Assembly: GCF_013410875.1 (NCBI RefSeq)
Contig: NZ_JACCCU010000001.1
Location: forward strand, 2,728,001-2,792,000
Length of the DNA stretch: 64,000 nucleotides
Source: Tunturiibacter empetritectus
GTDB taxonomy: Bacteria; Acidobacteriota; Terriglobia; Terriglobales; Acidobacteriaceae
Direction: 5' to 3'
Part shown: positions 3,615 to 13,203 of the stretch, piece by piece
Layout: every line of letters starts with the position of its first letter
How positions within the stretch are numbered: the stretch's first letter is position 1
Translations under genes and position numbers: made by a program
The notes under the pieces: model-generated
Databases searched by the model: none
Seen by the model: only the letters and a program-made list of their open reading frames with translations
What the model was told of the DNA's origin: nothing

Positions 3615-5690
3615 ATGATTTTGCGGAACCGGATTGCACTGTCTGCGTTGGTCTCATTGGCATTAATCTTCCCTGCCCTTTCGCAGGCACCGTTGCCCTC
3701 AGATGCGCGCCGCTCCGCATTGGGCCTTGGCGCGGCGTGGTATCCCGAGCAGTGGCCGGAGAGTCGTTGGGATGCAGATCTCACGCTGATGGAACAGGCG
3801 CACATAAATTTTGTGCGTGTGGGTGAGTTTGCATGGAGCACTATCGAGCCTCACGAAGGTGATTTTCATCTGGAGTGGTTGAAGCATGCGGTACGTGCAG
3901 CAGAGCGGCATCACATTGCGGTTGTCATAGGCACGCCATCCGCCGCACCGCCAGCATGGCTCACGCAGAAATATCCAGAGACTCTCCGCACCATGGAGAA
4001 CGGTCGGAAAGACGGGCACGGAAGCCGCCAGCAGTTTGACTGGAGCGATCCAAAGTATCGCGAGCTCAGCCGGAGAGTCGCGGAGAAGATGTCCGAGGCC
4101 TTCGGTCACGATGCGAATGTGGTCGGCTGGCAGATTGACAACGAATACGCCAACGAAAGCTTCGGACCTTCAACCCAGACGCAATTTCAGAACTGGCTTC
4201 ACGCGAAGTACGGCACGCTTGAGAATCTAAATAATCGGTGGACCACCGCCTACTGGAGTGAGACGTATCAGGATTGGAACCAGATCCCGATTGCCAATCA
4301 CGGGGGCAACCCGGGTCTGATGCTGAACTGGAAAGAGTTTGTCTCCGACACTTGGCGGAGTTATCAGAAGAACCAATTAGATGCGATCCGTGCTCATGCT
4401 GAGCCTCGGCAGATGATCACCACGAATATGATGGGATGGTTCGACGCTTACGATCACTACACGGTAGCGCAGGACCTCGACTTTGCCTCGTGGGACGATT
4501 ATGTGGGCACTGGGCATCTCGACCCAGTGCGCAACGGGGCGACTCACGATCTGACCCGCGGATTCTTGCACAAGAACTTCTGGGTGATGGAGACGCAGCC
4601 TGGATCTGTGAACTGGCAAACGGACAACAATGCGCTCGACAAGGGCGAGGTTCGAGCCATGGCGTGGAATGCGATAGGGCATGGCTCGGAAGCTGTGGAG
4701 TACTGGCAATGGCGAAGTGCCCTGAATGGACAGGAGCAGTATCACGGCACGCTGGTTGGAGCAGATGGGACCCCTGTTCCGCTATATAACGAGGTAAAAC
4801 AAATTGGGGCAGAGTTTGAGAAAGCTGCTCCATCGTTGGCGGAAACAACCATACAGTCTCAGGTTGCTGTGCTGCAAGACTACTCGAGTCGTTGGGCTAT
4901 CAACTGGCAGAGACACAACAAAGCCTTCGACCCTATCGATGCACTGTTGAGCTATTACGCTCCACTACATCAGTTGGCCCGTTCAGTTGATGTGATTAGC
5001 GATACCGCACCTATTGCGCAGTACAAACTGGTTGTCGCTCCAGCGCTCAACGTTTTGACCCCGGAGGCCACCAAAAATTTACAGGCTTACGTCCTCGCGG
5101 GTGGCAATTTGGTGCTCGGACAGCGAAGCGCTATGAAGAACGAAGACAATAGTCTCTTTTCAGAACGGCAACCCGGGCCACTAGCCGCGATGTTGGGAGC
5201 AAGAGTCGAACAATTCTATGCGTTGGATCAAGCCATCCCTGTGAGTGGCGTGTGGGGCGACGCGCAGAATAATATCTGGGCCGAACAATTAAGCGTAACG
5301 GAACAGACGACCCAGGTTTTGATGCGCTACGGCGCAAGCAATGGCTGGCTGGACGGGCAGCCTGCAGCCGTGACGAGGAAAGTTGGACGGGGAACGGTCA
5401 CATACATAGGTGCGGCGCTCAATGAGCCTGCGATGAAACACGCGGCAGAGTGGATGCTCAAGCAGAGCGGAGTCGCGACGGTATTGCCTGAGATCCCAAC
5501 AGATGTGGATGTGACGATAAGGTCAAACACAAAGACCAGGATTCTCATCCTGACGAACTACGGGTCTGAGATGCACCTCATCCAGCTGCCTCATGCAATG
5601 CAGGATGTGCTCAAGGGTGGCGATACAACCAGCGTTTCCCTTCCCCGATTTGGTGTCGCAGTGCTTAAGGAGTTGGCCGGTACTGAGTAG
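3615..5690 (+). CDS. Secreted beta-galactosidase, glycoside hydrolase family 42
   Basis: 691 residues with an N-terminal signal peptide (hydrophobic core ALVSLALIFPALS, cleavage near SQA). The catalytic (beta/alpha)8 barrel begins at LGAAWYPEQWP. The acid/base glutamate is in DNEY (E177) and the nucleophile in VMETQPGSVNW (E326), both at GH42 positions. A beta-galactosidase trimerisation-like domain (about 410-620) and a small C-terminal beta domain follow. AAGGAG lies six bases before the ATG. GH42 enzymes release terminal beta-galactose; some act on arabino-galacto-oligosaccharides. Being downstream of xylA it may process plant-derived oligosaccharides outside the cytoplasm. Substrate is not shown by sequence. 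Confidence 0.95.
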   Translation: MILRNRIALSALVSLALIFPALSQAPLPSDARRSALGLGAAWYPEQWPESRWDADLTLMEQAHINFVRVGEFAWSTIEPHEGDFHLEWLKHAVRAAERHHIAVVIGTPSAAPPAWLTQKYPETLRTMENGRKDGHGSRQQFDWSDPKYRELSRRVAEKMSEAFGHDANVVGWQIDNEYANESFGPSTQTQFQNWLHAKYGTLENLNNRWTTAYWSETYQDWNQIPIANHGGNPGLMLNWKEFVSDTWRSYQKNQLDAIRAHAEPRQMITTNMMGWFDAYDHYTVAQDLDFASWDDYVGTGHLDPVRNGATHDLTRGFLHKNFWVMETQPGSVNWQTDNNALDKGEVRAMAWNAIGHGSEAVEYWQWRSALNGQEQYHGTLVGADGTPVPLYNEVKQIGAEFEKAAPSLAETTIQSQVAVLQDYSSRWAINWQRHNKAFDPIDALLSYYAPLHQLARSVDVISDTAPIAQYKLVVAPALNVLTPEATKNLQAYVLAGGNLVLGQRSAMKNEDNSLFSERQPGPLAAMLGARVEQFYALDQAIPVSGVWGDAQNNIWAEQLSVTEQTTQVLMRYGASNGWLDGQPAAVTRKVGRGTVTYIGAALNEPAMKHAAEWMLKQSGVATVLPEIPTDVDVTIRSNTKTRILILTNYGSEMHLIQLPHAMQDVLKGGDTTSVSLPRFGVAVLKELAGTE

Positions 5691-6339: not shown

Positions 6340-6624
6340 CTTTGTTCGCAGCACCGTTGGCGAGCGAGGCCGGGGAAACACTTCACTGCTCCGTGTTAAA
6401 GTGACCTGCGTATTCCGGACTGCGCATTTTCCATCAATCCGCAAGAACACGAATACACCTGAACCCTCAGAGTACATCCTGCCTTAGCCGATCATGCCAC
6501 GCATAAACGAATGGGTCCGTAGCGATGATTTTCTTGTAACCTTTTGAAGCCTAGCCGCTCTAATCGAGACTGTCGTTCGTGTTTTTTAGATAATGGCGAT
6601 CATTTAAACAAGTTGCGCGTAGAG

Positions 6625-8406
6625 ATGACAAAGACACGGGAGCTGTCGGCCCCAATGCGGATTGACCGAAAGCATCCGCTCGCCATTCGGTGGATGCATT
6701 GGATTAACTTTCCCGTGCTCTTCCTGATGATCTGGAGCGGACTGCTGATTTATTGGAACGACACGGACAATGCCTACCAGCATCCGCATGAGATATATCG
6801 CATTGGAATCGGAAAATTCACATTATTCCACCTGTTTCCGAATTGGTTTTGGAAGGCGATGAACGCACCGTATCACGTCACCCAGGGACTGGGACATCAC
6901 TTCTTTTTTATGTGGATCTTTGCCGCAAATGGCATTGCCTATGGGTCGTTTCTGGCGATCTCAGGCGAGTGGCACTTTCTAGTTCCGGAGCGGACGAGCC
7001 TGCAGGAGGCGATTCAGGTGACACTAGTGGACTTGCACTTGCGAAAAGGGCTACCACCGCAGACAAAATACAACGGGGCCCAGCGCATCGCTTATTCAGG
7101 CGTGATCGTCATGGGATTTGGGATGCTGGTGAGTGGACTGGCGATCTACAAGCCGACGCAGCTTCACTGGATGACGACGATCCTCGGCGGCTACGAGATG
7201 GCGCGCTGGGAGCACTTCTGGATCACAATGGGTTTCCTTGCCGCTTCAAGCGAGGACGAGCCCTCCGCGGTTCCCGTCGAGCCAGAAGAAGCTCCTTCAT
7301 CGCCAGCGGTCGAAGGTGCTCCGACGCCTTCTGCGAAAGACGAGAATCCGTCTGTGTCGCCGAAACCCGAGTTCGTCGAAGCCGCTGAGGATAGCCTGGA
7401 GGAGTCCGTTGCTGCGCATCTGGCTGAGCAGAACGCCGCCGTTCTAGCTGACTCGCGCAAGCACACGCGCCGCTCGTTTGCCGTCGCGGCTGTTGCAGCC
7501 ATTGCAGGCTACAATCTGTACGACTGGATTACCGATCGCTCTCGGCTGGAGATGCAGCCCTCTCCGTTTCGACGAGCGTTCAATGCCAACGCGTCACTGT
7601 CACGGACGATTTTCGATGATCGGGCATTAGCTCCGACGTATTCACTCCGCAAGGCCGAGAATTTGCGGGTTAACGGGGTCTATGGTCTGAAAATGGAGTT
7701 GGTTCCGGAGAACTATCGCCTGCAGCTTGTCGGTCGCGATGATGCAGACCATCCGCGATTCAGCCGCGATGTAACTGCCTGGGAGTACAAGTACGTCGCC
7801 GCCGCATCGCATGAGGATCAAGGCCACGATAACAAGACGCCACCGCCCGGTACGGCAAAAAAGATGGCCCCAGCGGAGATGGTTGATCAAGAAGTGAAGC
7901 GCGAGAGCCGAAGCGGTCACATGCCGCGGGGTCGAAAGGAGGCTGGGCAGAGCCATTCGACGCTCGCGCCGGGCACGCCAGGCCTGCTTCTCACGCTGCA
8001 GGATGTCCTGCGCCTCCCCAGGCACGAACTGGTCACGCAATTCAAATGCATCGAAGGTTGGAGCCAGATCGTCTATTGGGCGGGGCGTACAGATGGTGGA
8101 CTTTCTGGACGCGTACCCTCCCGCGCTCATCGATGGTCAGGAGCCGAGGTACGTCTACATGGAGACGTCCGGCGGCGACTACTACACCGGATACGATATG
8201 CAAGTATGTCGTCATCCCCAGACATTACTTGTCACGGAGCTGATGGGCGCTCCACTCACCCAATTTCATGGAGCGCCCCTGAGGCTCCACATGCCGACGA
8301 AGTACGGCTACAAGCAGATCAAACGCATAGGTCTGATCAGCTATACGAATATGAACCGGATGACTACTGGACCAAACTAGGGTATGACTGGTATGCGGGG
8401 CTGTAA
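6625..8406 (+). pseudogene. Cytochrome b561-like / molybdopterin oxidoreductase fusion, frameshifted
   Basis: From ATG 6625 the frame encodes a b-type cytochrome: HPLAIRWMHWINF with a first helix, GLGHHFFFMW and two further helices, ending at RWEHFWITMGFL where the last helix should follow but an acidic Ala/Pro/Glu linker starts. After the linker comes a twin-arginine-like segment (HTRRSFAVAAVAAIAG) and a sulfite-oxidase-fold molybdenum-cofactor domain with the candidate metal cysteine in FKCIEGWS. At the GGGG run near 8082-8085 the reading moves one frame (VQMVDFLDAYPP, YTGYDMQVCRHPQ, MPTKYGYKQIKRIG), then returns near 8350 (DDYWTKLGYDWYAGL). Likely role when intact: membrane-anchored periplasmic molybdoenzyme fed by quinol. 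Two frameshifts and a probable deletion of the final cytochrome helix argue for a pseudogene. Confidence 0.75.
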
Positions 8407-8437: not shown

Positions 8438-9208
8438 ATGAAACCAATTGACTGTAGTCCACCCTGCTCAGTGATTCGAGACCATAGTGACAATCTGTTT
8501 GAGCAGTGCGCGTGGTTCTATGCGATCTGTCGCGAGTACCTGTTTCGCGATCATACCGCGGAGATTACTGAGGCTCTCTTTCCCGAAGATGGCCCATTGA
8601 GTGGAACCTATGTCCTTGAGGTCGGCTGTGGTCCGGGGTTTTATTCGCGGCGGTTGGCGCAACGCTATCCCACCATTCGCACGATGGGCATCGATATGTC
8701 GGCACGTCTGCTGGAGTGGGCGAAGGTGCGTGCCTCCAATCTGCGTCTACAGAACTGCAGCTTCCGCGAAGGCGACGCTCAGGCGCTACCGGAACTAAAC
8801 GCTCCGGTAGATGCAGTGATCTGCTCGCGACTCCTGCTGATCGTCCCAGACAGAGAGGCGGTGCTGGCTGAAGTCTTTCGCATTTTGAGACCCGGTGGCC
8901 GATGTTTTTTCGCGGAACCAACATCCGCATTTAAGACGCGCATTCCCCTGCTGGGGATGCATCTTGCGGCAAACATCATCAGTCGCTCCGGACGATGGAG
9001 CGGCAAGCCGCATAAAGCGGAAGTGCTCTGCCACAAAGCCTTCTGCGACCTGATCCACACACAACCTTGGAAGTCGGTAAGCATCCAGAGCACCACTGGA
9101 TATCAGTATGCCGTCTGTCAAAAGCCGTATGCAGAGGAAGATCTAACCTTAGAGGGAGTGTGTGAGAGGGTGGAGGAGCACACGTTGAAGAACTGGAGTG
9201 TTGCCTGA
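8438..9208 (+). CDS. Class I SAM-dependent methyltransferase
   Basis: 256 residues with a Rossmann methyltransferase core: motif I VLEVGCGPGFYS (about 55-66), the acidic motif II region MGIDMSARLLEWA, motif III EGDAQALP, and the post-motif FRILRPGGRCFFAEP. The C-terminal part (HLAANIISRSGRW onward) is a substrate cap I do not recognise. It lacks the paired cysteines of ArsM arsenite methyltransferases, so despite the arsenosugar-type neighbour it is probably not one. First gene of a four-gene rightward operon; the next gene starts at the stop codon (TGAGTG). Substrate unknown. Confidence 0.85.
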   Translation: MKPIDCSPPCSVIRDHSDNLFEQCAWFYAICREYLFRDHTAEITEALFPEDGPLSGTYVLEVGCGPGFYSRRLAQRYPTIRTMGIDMSARLLEWAKVRASNLRLQNCSFREGDAQALPELNAPVDAVICSRLLLIVPDREAVLAEVFRILRPGGRCFFAEPTSAFKTRIPLLGMHLAANIISRSGRWSGKPHKAEVLCHKAFCDLIHTQPWKSVSIQSTTGYQYAVCQKPYAEEDLTLEGVCERVEEHTLKNWSVA

Positions 9209-9964
9209 GTGCTGTATCCGATCCTGAACCCTACAATGAAAGATGCCACTTTGGCTTCGGTCTGCGCGTTGGCCGTAATGGCGAAGGCTCCGAGGCCGGG
9301 CAAGGTAAAGACTCGGCTGGCACCGCCTCTGACATTGGAGCAGTCGGCTGCCATCAATACCTGTTTTTTGAAGGACACAACGGCGAACATCGCAGCATTA
9401 CAGCCTAAGGGACACAGTGCCGGAGTTATCTCGTATACGCCCATCGGGGATGAGGCTCTCTTCGATGGTTTGCTGCCGCCGGAGTTCTCGCTGATTCCAC
9501 AGCGTGGCGACAGCTTTGGCGAGCGGCTGTTGGCATCGGCGGAGGACCTGCTTGCCTGCGGATTCGGAGCGGTGTGCCTGATCGACTCGGACTCGCCGAC
9601 AGTGCCGGCGGCAGCATTCTCGCAGGCGGTCGAGGCGTTGTTACAGTCGGGCGATCGTATCGTGCTGGGCCCATCGAACGACGGAGGCTACTATCTGATC
9701 GGCCTGAAGCAGCCGCATCCACGGCCCTTCACGAACATTACGTGGAGTACCTCAGTCGTGTACGAAGAAACCGTTGCGGCGGTCTGCGCTGCAGGCATCG
9801 AGCTTGTCGAATTACCCATGTGGTACGACGTCGACGATGGCGCAACGCTTGAGATCCTTCGCGCGGAACTGCTTGATGGAACAAGACCGTCGTTCGCAAC
9901 GTTGAAGGGATACGCGGCAGAGCACAGCAGAAAGTTTTTGCTGGACCTGGAGACGCAGCCATGA
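9209..9964 (+). CDS. DUF2064/TIGR04282-type glycosyltransferase (GT-A, CofC-like fold)
   Basis: 251 residues from GTG 9209 (ATG 9236 is an alternative and starts closer to the domain). The nucleotide-binding start AVMAKAPRPGKVKTRLAPPL, the LIDSDSPTVP acidic motif and LGPSNDGGYYLIGL are hallmarks of the family annotated as arsenosugar-biosynthesis glycosyltransferase, related to 2-phospholactate guanylyltransferase. The C-terminal MWYDVDDGATL is also typical. It may make or transfer a nucleotide-activated sugar. It touches the methyltransferase gene and overlaps the next gene by four bases, so the three are translationally coupled. The arsenosugar label comes from family naming; nothing here proves arsenic chemistry. 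Confidence 0.85.
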   Translation: MLYPILNPTMKDATLASVCALAVMAKAPRPGKVKTRLAPPLTLEQSAAINTCFLKDTTANIAALQPKGHSAGVISYTPIGDEALFDGLLPPEFSLIPQRGDSFGERLLASAEDLLACGFGAVCLIDSDSPTVPAAAFSQAVEALLQSGDRIVLGPSNDGGYYLIGLKQPHPRPFTNITWSTSVVYEETVAAVCAAGIELVELPMWYDVDDGATLEILRAELLDGTRPSFATLKGYAAEHSRKFLLDLETQP

Positions 9965-11388
9965 GCCAGGAAAGAATACAACTACGCCACGCGGGGGTAA
10001 GGGCATGGCTGACGAACATCGTGTTGAGCGTGCTTGGATTCATCCTGCTCGACCTGACACGTCAGCTCATCAAGGAGTTCCATCACTTTACTATTGGCTT
10101 TTCCGGCGTTAGCGGCTGGTCTGTTTTGGTCTATCTCGCGGCCATGGCCCTCATTCTGACACAGCCGGTCAACCGCTATACCTTTGCGATCATTCTGACC
10201 ATAGCGATCGCGTGTCGTCTGGTAACACTGCTGCCGGAACCCTTCATGTCTTCGGATATCTATCGCTACGCGTGGGATGGAGTAGTGCAACATGCACACA
10301 TCTCGCCGTATCGCTATGTGCCGGGTGATCCTGCGCTTACTGCTCTGCGTGCTCCGAATCAGGACCTCTTCGATCACATCAACCGGCGCGACTACGCGCA
10401 CACGATTTATCCTCCGGTCTCGCAGTTTCTGTTCTTCCTCATCACCTTTCTCAATCCCACCGTCACGTTTATGAAGCTGGCGATGATCCTGATGGAGGGG
10501 CTGACCATGTACTCCTTGGTCCACCTGCTTACAGGCATGGGCTTCGCGCGGGAGAGAGTCTTGCTCTACGCCTGGTGCCCGCTGCTCATCTGGGAGATCG
10601 GCAGCTCCGGGCACCTGGACTCCGCCGCGATGGCGTTCATCGCTCTCGCTCTGTTGGCGCGCTATCGCGGAAGGCCACTTGCTACAGGGGTTTTTCTCGG
10701 TGCGGCCATCTTCATCAAGTTCTATCCTCTGATACTCTTTCCCGCGCTCTTCCGCCGTGGTGATTACAAAATGCCCGCGATTCTGGCGGCACTCGGCGCG
10801 TTCTCCTATGCCTGCTACGCTACCGTAGGCATGCGCGTCTTCGGATTTCTCGGCGGCTACATTCAAGAAGAAGGCATGCGCTCCGGCGCACGCTATTTCT
10901 TGCTGGAGCTGACGCAGCATATTCCGGGATTGCACGTTTTGCCCGTACCAGCGTATATGGTGTTCGTAGCCTGTGTCTTCGCTGCAATTCTGGTGTGGTG
11001 CTGGAAGACGGCGAGCAGCCTCGCTCCCGGCGAGGTGCGCGGTTCACTTTGGACCGAAGCCCTCAACCTTCCTGCTACCGCAAACTTTCTTCCCCCCGCG
11101 ATGGTGCTGGCCTTTGCCATGATGCTGCTCTTCTCGCCGCACTATCCATGGTACGTCGCATGGCTGGTGCCGTTCTTCACCCTGATGCCGAGCCTTCCGC
11201 TGTTGGCATACACCAGCGGCCTGTTCTATCTCTGCGCGACGCAGTTGGGCGCGGGTACGGCGGAGTCCGAATTCTTGCTGAACCGCATCCTCTACACCGG
11301 CGTGCTCGTTGCGCTGGGAATAGATGTCGTATGGCGACAATGGACGATGCGCCACAGCGTCGCGCAGAGGCGCTCGCCTCATGAGTAA
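9961..11388 (+). CDS. Polytopic GT-C glycosyltransferase (mannosyltransferase-like, DUF2029/GT87 type)
   Basis: 475 residues with about 10-12 hydrophobic segments. The first large loop carries SSDIYRYAWDG, the acidic site typical of polyprenol-phosphate-sugar-dependent GT-C enzymes such as MptB-like mannosyltransferases, then SPYRYVPGDP and TIYPPVSQ, which recur in the family. It should move a sugar from a lipid-phosphate donor to an acceptor on the outer face of the inner membrane. It overlaps the DUF2064 gene (ATGA) and the next family 2 glycosyltransferase by eight bases. A family 2 polyprenyl-phosphate sugar synthase next door is the expected supplier of donor. Confidence 0.82.
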   Translation: MSQERIQLRHAGVRAWLTNIVLSVLGFILLDLTRQLIKEFHHFTIGFSGVSGWSVLVYLAAMALILTQPVNRYTFAIILTIAIACRLVTLLPEPFMSSDIYRYAWDGVVQHAHISPYRYVPGDPALTALRAPNQDLFDHINRRDYAHTIYPPVSQFLFFLITFLNPTVTFMKLAMILMEGLTMYSLVHLLTGMGFARERVLLYAWCPLLIWEIGSSGHLDSAAMAFIALALLARYRGRPLATGVFLGAAIFIKFYPLILFPALFRRGDYKMPAILAALGAFSYACYATVGMRVFGFLGGYIQEEGMRSGARYFLLELTQHIPGLHVLPVPAYMVFVACVFAAILVWCWKTASSLAPGEVRGSLWTEALNLPATANFLPPAMVLAFAMMLLFSPHYPWYVAWLVPFFTLMPSLPLLAYTSGLFYLCATQLGAGTAESEFLLNRILYTGVLVALGIDVVWRQWTMRHSVAQRRSPHE

Positions 11389-12079
11389 GTCGCAGATATC
11401 CGTCATCATCCCCACCCTGAACGAGTGCGAGTCCATCGGCCACGTCGTCGCCTCGATGCCATGGGATCGTATCGCGGAGTGCATCGTTGTGGATAACGGC
11501 TCGACTGACGGCACCGGAGAGGTTGCCGCTGCCGCAGGCGCGCGTGTAGTTCAGGCTTCTCGCGGATATGGCTCAGCGTGCAAGGCTGGATCGGAGGCGG
11601 CGTTGGCGAGCAGCGTCATCCTTGTCTACCTCGACGGCGATGGCAGCGACACCATTGAAGACCTGCCGCGACTAATCGAACCCATCGAGCGCGATGAGGC
11701 CGATTTCGTGATCGGCTCCCGCATTCGCGGACACGTCGAGCCAGGCTCGATGCTCGGCAGTCAGATCTTTGCAGCGCACCTCGTCGGCTTTCTTGTGCGC
11801 ATGCTGCAGGGCGTCCATTACACCGACATGGGAGCCTTCCGCGCGATTCGTCGCACCAGCTTCGAGCGGCTGCAGATGTCGGAGATGACCTACGGATGGA
11901 ACCTGGAGATGCAGATCAAGGCGGCGCAGCACAAGCTGCGCATTCTCGAGCTGCCTGTGAACTATCGGCGCAGAATCGGCGGCGTCAGTAAGGTCTCCGG
12001 CGATCTGCGCACCTCCTTCAAGGCAGGCGTCCGCATCCTCGTCGTCGCCTTCCGGGTTGGCATGTCGCGCAAATCTTAG
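11381..12079 (+). CDS. Family 2 glycosyltransferase, polyprenyl-phosphate sugar synthase-like
   Basis: 232 residues from ATG 11381, inside the end of the preceding gene; longer upstream in-frame starts would add a non-conserved tail. GT-A signatures: SVIIPTLNECESIG, VVDNGSTDGTG, the metal-binding YLDGDGSD, and the acceptor-side MGAFRAIRR with YGWNLEMQIKAA. The short C-terminus without membrane helices matches dolichol-phosphate-mannose synthase-like enzymes that charge a lipid carrier with a sugar at the cytoplasmic face. This fits the GT-C gene just upstream. Ends convergently with the epimerase gene with a few bases of overlap. Confidence 0.87.
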   Translation: MSKSQISVIIPTLNECESIGHVVASMPWDRIAECIVVDNGSTDGTGEVAAAAGARVVQASRGYGSACKAGSEAALASSVILVYLDGDGSDTIEDLPRLIEPIERDEADFVIGSRIRGHVEPGSMLGSQIFAAHLVGFLVRMLQGVHYTDMGAFRAIRRTSFERLQMSEMTYGWNLEMQIKAAQHKLRILELPVNYRRRIGGVSKVSGDLRTSFKAGVRILVVAFRVGMSRKS

Positions 12080-13203
12080 ACAGCAATGCTCTGGACGATA
12101 CCCTTCTCGCGCAATCCTGTCTCAGCCTTTGAAAAGTAGTCCTCTACCGCACCCTGTGTCTTGATCCACGCGACATACTTCGCGATGCCTTGTTCGAGCG
12201 TAGTCTGCGGCTCATAGCCAATGCTGCGGATACGGCTGATGTCGGAGATCAACGAGCGAATCTCACCGGGACGGAACTCGCCGCGTGCCAGCGGTGCGAG
12301 AGGAATACTGAGCTGTTCGGCGATGATACCCGCAAGGTCGCGTACGCTGGTGGCATGTCCACTGCCGACGTTGACCGGCTGACCGTCCAGCTTGTCGGTC
12401 GTCGCCACCAGAAGATTGGCACGGGCAATATCTTCAACGAAGCAGAGGTCGCGCGTCTGTCCGCCGTCCTCATACAGAATCGGCGGCTGGTTGTTCAGCA
12501 GCCGAGTGCAGAAGATCGCGATGACGCCGGTATACGGATTGAACAGCGACTGGCGCGGCCCATAAGTGCAGGAGTAGCGTAACGCCACCGTGGGGATGCC
12601 GGTCTGCTTGCCCCATAAAAGCACAAGCCGCTCCTGATCCACCTTGGTCAGCGCGTAGACTGTCTCGCCGCCGCCCGGCGTCCCCTCCGGCGTAGGGATC
12701 GAGATCGTATGTCTGCCGCAAATTGGACAGTGCACGCTGAAGTCGCCTGCGCGTAACTGCTCCGCGGGGCGAAGCAGCGGAACAACATGACCGTGCTCCA
12801 CGCACAGCGCCGCACCCTCGCTGTAGACGGCCTGCGAGCTAGCGACGACAACCTTCTGGATCGGCAGCTTATGATCGCGAATGATCTCCAGCATCTGTGC
12901 CGTGCCGAAGCTGTTGACGAGCACATACTTCGCCATCTCAGGCATGTAGCCGCCATAGGCCGCTTCGTGAAAGACGACGTCGATGTCGAGTAGTGCTTCG
13001 TGCATGGTCTTATAGTCCTGCACGTCGCCTTGGCGGAACTCCGCCGCGAGGTTCATCCACATCGGCCTTCCGTTCTTGTGCGTCTGCGGTTCGAGGTTGT
13101 CGAGTATACGAACGCTCCAGCCCTCACGAATGAGGAGATCGACGACGTGAGAACCGATCAGGCCAGCGCCGCCTGTGACCAATGCGCGTTTTGGATGTGA
13201 CAT
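12076..13203 (-). CDS. NAD-dependent sugar-nucleotide epimerase/dehydratase with cysteine/histidine insert
   Basis: 375 residues, extended short-chain dehydrogenase. NAD-binding GGAGLIGSHV at 11-20, catalytic tyrosine and lysine in VYALTKVDQ (Y183, K187), and the sugar-nucleotide half RYSCTYGPRQS. It resembles UDP-glucose 4-epimerase and, more closely by its insert, WbiB-like dTDP-rhamnose 4-epimerases. The insert between the beta-sheet and the catalytic tyrosine holds C134, H137, C159, C162 and H165 (CVEH, CPICGRH), a plausible zinc knuckle. It is convergent with the four-gene glycosyltransferase operon and probably supplies its sugar nucleotide. Exact substrate cannot be read from sequence. 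Confidence 0.85.
   Translation of the reverse strand: MSHPKRALVTGGAGLIGSHVVDLLIREGWSVRILDNLEPQTHKNGRPMWMNLAAEFRQGDVQDYKTMHEALLDIDVVFHEAAYGGYMPEMAKYVLVNSFGTAQMLEIIRDHKLPIQKVVVASSQAVYSEGAALCVEHGHVVPLLRPAEQLRAGDFSVHCPICGRHTISIPTPEGTPGGGETVYALTKVDQERLVLLWGKQTGIPTVALRYSCTYGPRQSLFNPYTGVIAIFCTRLLNNQPPILYEDGGQTRDLCFVEDIARANLLVATTDKLDGQPVNVGSGHATSVRDLAGIIAEQLSIPLAPLARGEFRPGEIRSLISDISRIRSIGYEPQTTLEQGIAKYVAWIKTQGAVEDYFSKAETGLREKGIVQSIAV

What the first reader, a model, noticed from the sequence alone, without database searches (positions are those of the whole stretch)
8438..13203. Coupled methyltransferase, DUF2064, GT-C, GT2 and epimerase set: candidate uncharacterised glycolipid pathway
Seen: four rightward genes with stop-start overlaps (TGAGTG, 4 bp, 8 bp) and a convergent epimerase. 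Known: DUF2064/TIGR04282 proteins belong to a GT-A/CofC-like superfamily; the GT2 resembles polyprenyl-phosphate sugar synthases; the GT-C carries an SSDIYRYAWDG acidic loop. Inference: a nucleotide sugar is shaped by the epimerase, loaded on a lipid carrier by the GT2, and transferred outside by the GT-C, with methylation of product or lipid. The (broken) membrane molybdoenzyme just upstream may be a fifth part. I recall similar gene company in actinobacteria and proteobacteria but could not check.
Basis: partly seen in the sequence, partly recalled or inferred. Interest (0 to 1): 0.68.

Follow-up and report, generated by a model that had tools for sequence, protein, structure and literature searches.

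The report
Lipid-linked sugar operon, methylthioxylose-like
These genes are a partly decayed copy of a widely conserved bacterial operon that probably makes an unusual sugar, loads it on a membrane lipid and attaches it outside the cell, much like a pathway known from mycobacteria, with a radical enzyme and an ordinary epimerase apparently swapping for one another in the same step.

Summary
In detail: methyltransferase (MT), DUF2064, GT-C and GT2 overlap as described, a convergent epimerase follows, and a broken cytochrome b/molybdoenzyme pair precedes. The company is conserved. In the window's family two genomes carry one same-strand operon cytb-moco-MT-DUF2064-GTC-GT2-epimerase. In Methylobacterium and Acetobacteraceae it is typically cytb-moco-DUF2064-GT87-radical SAM-GT2 (DUF2064 within 5 kb of 60, GT87 57, GT2 60 of 63 well-flanked radical SAM loci). 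An Arthrobacter plasmid carries the window's set plus an MTA-phosphorylase-like gene; a Streptomyces plasmid fuses epimerase to GT2. Within the family, radical SAM and the epimerase orthologue exclude each other (epimerase in 5 of 5 cluster genomes without, 0 of 8 with); the tree suggests two switches. DUF2064 folds most like CofC-type nucleotidyltransferases. Best reading: sugar-1-phosphate activation (DUF2064), epimerisation (SDR or radical SAM), transfer to polyprenyl phosphate (GT2), outside transfer (GT-C), periplasmic redox (cytb-moco), as in the mycobacterial methylthioxylose cap of lipoarabinomannan. The sugar's identity is inferred and no mycobacterial MTX gene could be compared. The window genome lacks the radical SAM gene and its molybdoenzyme is broken.

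The parts
6544..7245 (+). cytochrome b561-type membrane subunit, C-terminus missing, running on into the next remnant
   Evidence: PF01292 38.6 bits; 67% identical (160 of 238) to the intact G289 protein up to 7242, where the alignment ends
7246..8406 (+). remnant of the exported molybdopterin oxidoreductase (MsrP/YedY-like); reading frame disrupted, part of the domain in another frame at 8003-8380
   Evidence: PF00174 52.4 bits in the 8003-8380 ORF; 45% match to the intact G289 protein with a scrambled stretch; same state in G060
8438..9208 (+). class I SAM-dependent methyltransferase
   Evidence: PF13847 83.6 bits; homologue beside DUF2064 in 12 of 13 family genomes with the DUF2064-GTC cluster, window included (not G083)
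9209..9964 (+). DUF2064/TIGR04282 protein, predicted nucleotidyltransferase that activates a sugar 1-phosphate
   Evidence: TIGR04282 159.3 bits; AlphaFold model pLDDT 93, nearest folds 3cgx, then CofC/FbiD-type guanylyltransferases
9961..11388 (+). GT-C (GT87-like) integral membrane glycosyltransferase
   Evidence: PF09594 25.5 bits; orthologues 50-61% identical; 40% identical to Methylobacterium GT87
11381..12079 (+). GT2, predicted polyprenyl-phosphate sugar synthase
   Evidence: PF00535 75.2 bits; best PDB profile match dolichol-phosphate mannose synthase 5mlz; orthologues 65-73%
12076..13203 (-). SDR nucleotide-sugar epimerase with a CPxCG insert
   Evidence: PF01370 134.4 bits; 89% and 86% orthologues directly downstream of GT2 on the same strand in G289 and G323

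Best explanation
The stretch is a reduced copy of a conserved operon for adding one unusual sugar outside the cytoplasm. DUF2064 couples a sugar 1-phosphate to a nucleotide; an epimerase inverts one centre (here an SDR, in most relatives a radical SAM/SPASM enzyme); GT2 moves the sugar to polyprenyl phosphate; GT-C transfers it to an acceptor outside; a quinone-linked cytochrome b/molybdopterin oxidoreductase carries out a redox step on the exported product, here lost. By analogy with the mycobacterial methylthioxylose (MTX) cap, the sugar is most likely a 5-methylthiopentose derived from 5'-methylthioadenosine (MTA), the epimerisation is ribo to xylo at C3, and the molybdoenzyme interconverts thioether and sulfoxide. 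Shown: gene set, order, families, exclusivity of radical SAM and epimerase in one family, nucleotidyltransferase-like fold. Inferred: every reaction, the sugar, the acceptor and the MT's role.
For: Full operon in G289 and G323. Radical SAM loci: DUF2064 60, GT87 57, GT2 60, moco 49 of 63 well-flanked loci, order DUF2064-GT87-rSAM-GT2 in 51 of the 52 with all three. Methylobacterium plasmids. Arthrobacter GT2-DUF2064-MT-GT87-MTA-phosphorylase-like-epimerase with moco convergent. Rhodococcus moco-hyp-MT-hyp-MTA phosphorylase-epimerase-GT2-DUF2064, a GtrA-family gene beside it; the phosphorylase scores 443 over the NF005876 cut-off 306. Epimerase-GT2 fusion in Streptomyces. Fold of DUF2064. Radical SAM model nearest to DesII, which I recall as acting on a TDP-sugar. 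Exclusivity 5 of 5 versus 0 of 8, two switches on the tree. MtxS Rv0539 makes MTX-P-C50 and MtxT Rv0541c transfers it (legend in PMC8780516); a five-gene MTX cluster exists (passage of PMC5911930); its donor comes from MTA (passage of PMC11127046).
Against: No mycobacterial Rv0535-Rv0541c sequence could be compared, so the MTX link rests on actinobacterial clusters, published passages and recall. No MTA phosphorylase in the acidobacterial or alphaproteobacterial clusters: no hit in the 87 loci or the 10 family loci; all 26 family genomes tested have one outside the cluster, whether or not they have the cluster. The Arthrobacter phosphorylase falls just under the MTA cut-offs (265.1 of 274.85; 283.7 of 306). 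The Rhodococcus protein in the GT-C's place matches neither GT87 nor the window GT-C profile. The actinobacterial MTs match the window MT over 45 residues at best. GT-C has no PDB match. Glycosyltransferase chains also appear lower in the DUF2064 fold list (ranks 25, 32). The radical SAM model is of moderate confidence (pLDDT 72). In 14 of 63 well-flanked loci no molybdoenzyme was seen within 5 kb.
Confidence: 0.5

Rival explanations
1. Same cassette design, but the sugar is an ordinary or O-methylated pentose or hexose rather than a methylthio sugar; the MT methylates it and the molybdoenzyme does general periplasmic sulfoxide repair.
For: No MTA phosphorylase in the acidobacterial or proteobacterial clusters; an MT sits beside DUF2064 in 12 of 13 family clusters; GT2 matches hexose-type polyprenyl synthases.
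Against: A clear MTA phosphorylase lies inside the Rhodococcus cluster and a close relative of one inside the Arthrobacter cluster; the molybdoenzyme is near the radical SAM gene in 49 of 63 well-flanked loci, which general repair would not explain.
Confidence: 0.3
2. Arsenosugar biosynthesis, as the library name of TIGR04282 suggests.
For: DUF2064 passes TIGR04282, named arsenosugar biosynthesis glycosyltransferase.
Against: MT far below the arsenite methyltransferase cut-offs (63.5 of 263; 70.1 of 510); GT2 53.4 of 182 for TIGR04283; ArsS is not among the 25 families shown (of 43 and 49) for two of the operon's radical SAM proteins, whose best is 152 and 155 of 380 for another family; DUF2064 fold nearest to nucleotidyltransferases.
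Confidence: 0.04
3. In this genome the cluster is decaying and has no present function.
For: Molybdoenzyme broken and radical SAM not found at E 1e-40 in the genome.
Against: MT, DUF2064, GT-C, GT2 and epimerase are open and keep tight overlaps; non-synonymous differences lie well below synonymous ones against G289 (pN 0.08-0.28, pS 0.68-0.77), though synonymous sites are near saturation; G000 and G060 differ by 2 bases in 6660, so recent relaxation cannot be excluded.
Confidence: 0.15

Closest known systems
Methylthioxylose (MTX) capping pathway of mycobacterial lipoarabinomannan (MtxS Rv0539, MtxT Rv0541c)
   Same: A synthase of polyprenyl-phosphate-linked sugar plus a transferase acting on it (legend), the transferase a GT-C (passage); five dedicated genes (passage). 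MTA phosphorylase, epimerase and DUF2064 as further members are recalled for M. tuberculosis and seen here in Rhodococcus in the order MTA phosphorylase-epimerase-GT2-DUF2064.
   Different: Here in other phyla; no MTA phosphorylase in the cluster; extra cytochrome b/molybdoenzyme and MT; radical SAM in place of the epimerase in most relatives. Direct sequence comparison not done.
Three-component pentofuranose addition systems (PPPRS, MATE flippase, GT136; PMC11127046)
   Same: Lipid-linked pentofuranose donor, epimerase gain or loss changing the sugar, GT-C outside (passages and Discussion part 1 of 2 read).
   Different: Donor made from PRPP by a UbiA-like enzyme, not by a nucleotidyltransferase plus GT2; no radical SAM or molybdoenzyme in what I read.
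MsrPQ-type methionine sulfoxide reductase / YedY
   Same: Molybdopterin domain next to a cytochrome b membrane subunit; a Cys that I take for the Mo ligand invariant in 15 of 15; PDB match 1xdq.
   Different: Below the MsrP cut-off (98 of 207 bits for the intact G083 protein); tied to a glycosylation operon.
DesII, BtrN: radical SAM enzymes of sugar metabolism (functions recalled)
   Same: Radical SAM fold; DesII is the best structural match; BtrN is recalled as doing a dehydrogenation done elsewhere by an NAD-dependent enzyme.
   Different: About 17% identity; activity here untested; SPASM C-terminus.

Membership tests
MTX capping pathway | GT2-type polyprenyl-phosphate sugar synthase and GT-C transferase encoded together | tested here: met
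   at family level only:
MTX capping pathway | sequence orthology to Rv0539 and Rv0541c | not testable with these tools
MTX capping pathway | MTA phosphorylase in the gene cluster (recalled as a member in M. tuberculosis) | tested here: not met
   the genome's two matches lie outside the window; none in the 87 plus 10 loci; present in the Rhodococcus cluster, just under the cut-offs in the Arthrobacter one
MTX capping pathway | 5-methylthioxylose in the product | not testable with these tools
   needs lipid or glycan analysis
TIGR04282 (arsenosugar glycosyltransferase by name) | score over the curated cut-off | tested here: met
   159.3 over 134
TIGR04282 (arsenosugar glycosyltransferase by name) | glycosyltransferase rather than nucleotidyltransferase | tested here: inconclusive
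   after the same-family 3cgx the nearest folds are guanylyl- and cytidylyltransferases; glycosyltransferase chains appear at ranks 25 and 32; no activity tested
Arsenosugar biosynthesis cluster | ArsS radical SAM and ArsM neighbours | tested here: not met
MsrP | NF003767 cut-off 207 bits | tested here: not met
   intact G083 relative 98 bits; window fragment 45.5
MsrP-like molybdoenzymes (fold) | Oxidored_molyb domain with conserved Cys and a cytochrome b partner | tested here: met
   in relatives; the window copy is broken
SDR nucleotide-sugar epimerases | TGxxGxxG and YxxxK motifs | tested here: met
   both visible in the translation; PF01370

The most novel reading that the evidence does not exclude
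Methylthio-sugar capping of surface glycans, which in what I read is described only from mycobacterial lipoarabinomannan, is an old trait spread over Acidobacteriota, Alphaproteobacteria and Actinomycetota. It is coupled to a dedicated periplasmic molybdoenzyme that switches the sugar between thioether and sulfoxide, and its sugar epimerase exists in two unrelated forms, an SDR and a radical SAM/SPASM sugar epimerase, that have replaced one another at least twice within one family.
Probability: 0.28. Interest if true: 0.8.

Novelty: new variant of a known kind. Interest (0 to 1): 0.6.

Why it matters
PMC11127046 says of methylthioxylose addition that it is unclear whether it exists outside lipoarabinomannan assembly (passage). 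These operons give a direct, testable candidate in soil and plant bacteria. They also give DUF2064, a name found in no paper of the held library, a concrete predicted activity (nucleotidyltransferase), link a molybdoenzyme family to glycan chemistry, and predict a radical SAM sugar epimerase from its apparent replacement by an ordinary one.

Tried and rejected
Arsenosugar reading: rejected on cut-offs. Hopanoid reading, considered because some Acetobacteraceae loci carry a nucleoside phosphorylase: the one tested scores 19.1 of 187.1 for HpnG; dropped. DUF2064 as a glycosyltransferase: disfavoured by the fold ranking, not excluded. GT-C alone as a marker: 79 of 151 class genomes have a hit, but outside the window's family these are mostly about 30% identical; comparing the coordinates by eye, GT-C and DUF2064 are adjacent in 12 genomes (7 of the window's family, 5 of one other genus; the latter confirmed). 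Promoter/terminator scan: no promoter-like site (3.5 expected by chance) and 15 terminator-like sites (6.0 expected), none taken as evidence. Paper searches for DUF2064, TIGR04282, the Rv numbers and this gene company found no description of the operon. PMC13118837 was looked at by passages and is unrelated; PMC7502851 only lists the MTX reference. Loose ends against a strictly fixed set: the G083 epimerase (81%) lies elsewhere in its genome without cluster genes nearby; G187 carries cytb-moco-epimerase without DUF2064, GT-C, GT2 or MT in the stretch read; the Rhodococcus, M. abscessus and Streptomyces clusters have, in the GT-C's place, a protein not matched to GT87 (the M. abscessus one reaches only 21.8 of 26.1 for PMT_2).
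Full report
What is there. The window (contig 1 of a 5.07 Mb genome) holds MT 8438-9208, DUF2064 9209-9964, GT-C 9961-11388, GT2 11381-12079 and, convergent, an SDR epimerase 12076-13203. Upstream, 6544-8406 is a cytochrome b561 piece run together with a molybdopterin oxidoreductase whose domain is split over two frames. The same state is in a second genome of the species (99.97% over 6660 bp, no gaps).

Conservation close by. Of 151 genomes of the class, 79 have some GT-C match and 70 some DUF2064 match, but only 7 have close orthologues, all in the window's family (f1 in the tool). Of 200 genomes of that family, 10 have the GT-C at E 1e-80, 5 the radical SAM protein and 6 the window's epimerase orthologue at 81% or more, the rest being 47% or less. 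G289 and G323 carry cytb-moco-MT-DUF2064-GTC-GT2-epimerase on one strand, with cytb and moco as intact ORFs. G200 carries cytb-moco-MT-DUF2064-GTC-radical SAM up to a contig end; G212 carries MT-DUF2064-GTC-radical SAM-GT2 with cytb-moco on the other strand beside it; G269 and the same-genus G066, G095, G127 and G135 carry MT-DUF2064-GTC-radical SAM-GT2 with no molybdoenzyme in the stretch read (a cytochrome-like piece at the edge of the G095 stretch); G237 has the radical SAM gene elsewhere. G083 has DUF2064-GTC-GT2 without the MT, cytb-moco divergent, and the epimerase elsewhere. G187 has cytb-moco-epimerase only. An MT homologue is beside DUF2064 in 12 of 13 such clusters.

Radical SAM and epimerase exclude each other. 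Among 13 family genomes with the GT-C (10 plus G095, G127 and G135), the 5 without the radical SAM all have the epimerase orthologue; the 8 with it have none. The probability is 0.0008 with all 13, 0.002 if the two genomes of one species count once; relatedness is not corrected for in these numbers. More distant epimerases (38-44%) do occur in G212, G237 and G269. A tree of DUF2064 plus GT-C places the epimerase form in two separate spots, G000 with G289 and G323, and G083 apart from them; the branches between have local supports of 0.918 and 0.955 (one method, the alternative of a single clade was not tested formally). The simplest reading is that the two proteins do the same step.

Conservation far off. 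A scan with the radical SAM profile found 219 relatives, of which the best 80 loci were kept, mostly Acetobacteraceae, other Rhodospirillales and Methylobacterium, with one record named Acidobacteria. In the 63 loci with enough flank, DUF2064 lies within 5 kb in 60, GT87 in 57, GT2 in 60, the molybdoenzyme in 49 and the cytochrome in 46; all three of DUF2064, GT87 and GT2 in 52, in the same order and strand in 51 of these 52; the window's epimerase within 5 kb in 0 of all 80. These loci were picked by the radical SAM gene, so the counts say how constant its company is, not how common the pathway is. M. radiotolerans and M. aquaticum carry the operon on plasmids with an aminotransferase at the end. 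The radical SAM protein is 62-64% identical between Methylobacterium and the same-genus relatives.

Actinobacteria. Arthrobacter U41: GT2-DUF2064-MT-GT87-MTAP-family phosphorylase-epimerase, molybdoenzyme convergent; its phosphorylase falls just under the MTA cut-offs. Rhodococcus AQ5-07: molybdoenzyme-hypothetical-MT-hypothetical-MTA phosphorylase-epimerase-GT2-DUF2064, a GtrA-family gene near; its 453-residue hypothetical matches neither GT87 nor the window GT-C profile, so the GT-C of that cluster is not shown. Mycobacteroides abscessus plasmid: GT2-DUF2064-MT-molybdoenzyme-hypothetical, then on the other strand a gene 60% like that Rhodococcus protein with a sub-threshold PMT_2 match, and 6 kb on a second molybdoenzyme with the epimerase. 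Streptomyces BHT-5-2: epimerase fused to GT2, then DUF2064, then a 55% relative of the Rhodococcus protein, with a molybdoenzyme near. Kitasatospora: epimerase, and 2.7 kb further DUF2064-MT with cytb-moco convergent, no GT2 or GT87 annotated in the stretch. The window's GT-C, GT2, DUF2064 and epimerase match the Arthrobacter ones at 29, 38, 29 and 34%; the MTs match only locally.

How it works. DUF2064 is modelled with pLDDT 93; after the same-family structure 3cgx the nearest folds are CofC/FbiD-type guanylyltransferases, then KdsB, GlmU and IspD, with glycosyltransferase chains at ranks 25 and 32, and the CofC family model matches weakly (28.6 and 40 of 105 bits). GT2's best PDB match is dolichol-phosphate mannose synthase. 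The radical SAM model (pLDDT 72) is nearest to DesII, then PqqE and BlsE. The molybdoenzymes keep one cysteine, which I take for the Mo ligand, in 15 of 15; lipobox-like and twin-arginine-like N-termini I read as export. Taken together: activation, epimerisation, lipid loading, outside transfer, outside redox. This is the plan of the mycobacterial MTX cap: MtxS (Rv0539) makes MTX-P-C50 and MtxT (Rv0541c) transfers it (figure legend of PMC8780516), from a five-gene cluster (passage of PMC5911930), starting from 5'-methylthioadenosine and with a GT-C outside (passage of PMC11127046). That the five genes are Rv0535, Rv0536, Rv0539, Rv0540 and Rv0541c, and that Rv0540 is DUF2064, I recall and could not check. 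The title of a 2009 paper names a natural carbohydrate substrate of methionine sulfoxide reductase A of M. tuberculosis (reference seen, paper not read); an MsrP-like enzyme in these operons would fit a thioether/sulfoxide step on such a sugar.

Limits. The sugar, the acceptor and the MT's role are unknown. The MTA phosphorylase is not in the acidobacterial or proteobacterial clusters. All 26 family genomes tested have one elsewhere, in G212 about 20 kb away, with or without the cluster, so its presence does not discriminate. The window genome has lost the redox pair and uses the SDR form; whether the rest still works is open. Synonymous sites against relatives are near saturation, so the selection argument is weak.

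Noticed in passing
L077-L081 (one other genus of the class): GT2-DUF2064-GTC in tandem with a DoxX/DoxD-like gene (Pfam-tested in L077 and L078) and radical SAM genes of other families nearby (Pfam-tested in L077, L078, L079); the one in L077 passes the Rv1681-family cut-off (480 of 380 bits). A parallel cassette with a different radical SAM enzyme.
   Followed up: partly
L107:2321-3064 and 14 further loci: An ORF cluster in 15 of 87 loci, upstream of the cytochrome gene in L107; the one member tested is a periplasmic solute-binding protein (SBP_bac_11). Role unknown.
   Followed up: no
L152:6961-7836 and 8 further loci: An ORF cluster in 9 of 87 loci; the one member tested is nucleoside-phosphorylase-like (PNP_UDP_1, no MTA phosphorylase match) and lies between molybdoenzyme and DUF2064.
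   Followed up: partly
L229 (G187): cytb-moco directly followed by the epimerase, without MT, DUF2064 or transferases in the 10 kb read: either a remnant or a sign that epimerase and molybdoenzyme have a link of their own.
   Followed up: no
window 3615-5690: GH42 beta-galactosidase upstream of the cluster; no link seen.
   Followed up: no
library name of TIGR04282: The name 'arsenosugar biosynthesis glycosyltransferase' is carried onto proteins with a nucleotidyltransferase-like fold and no arsenic gene company seen here; probably misleading.
   Followed up: partly
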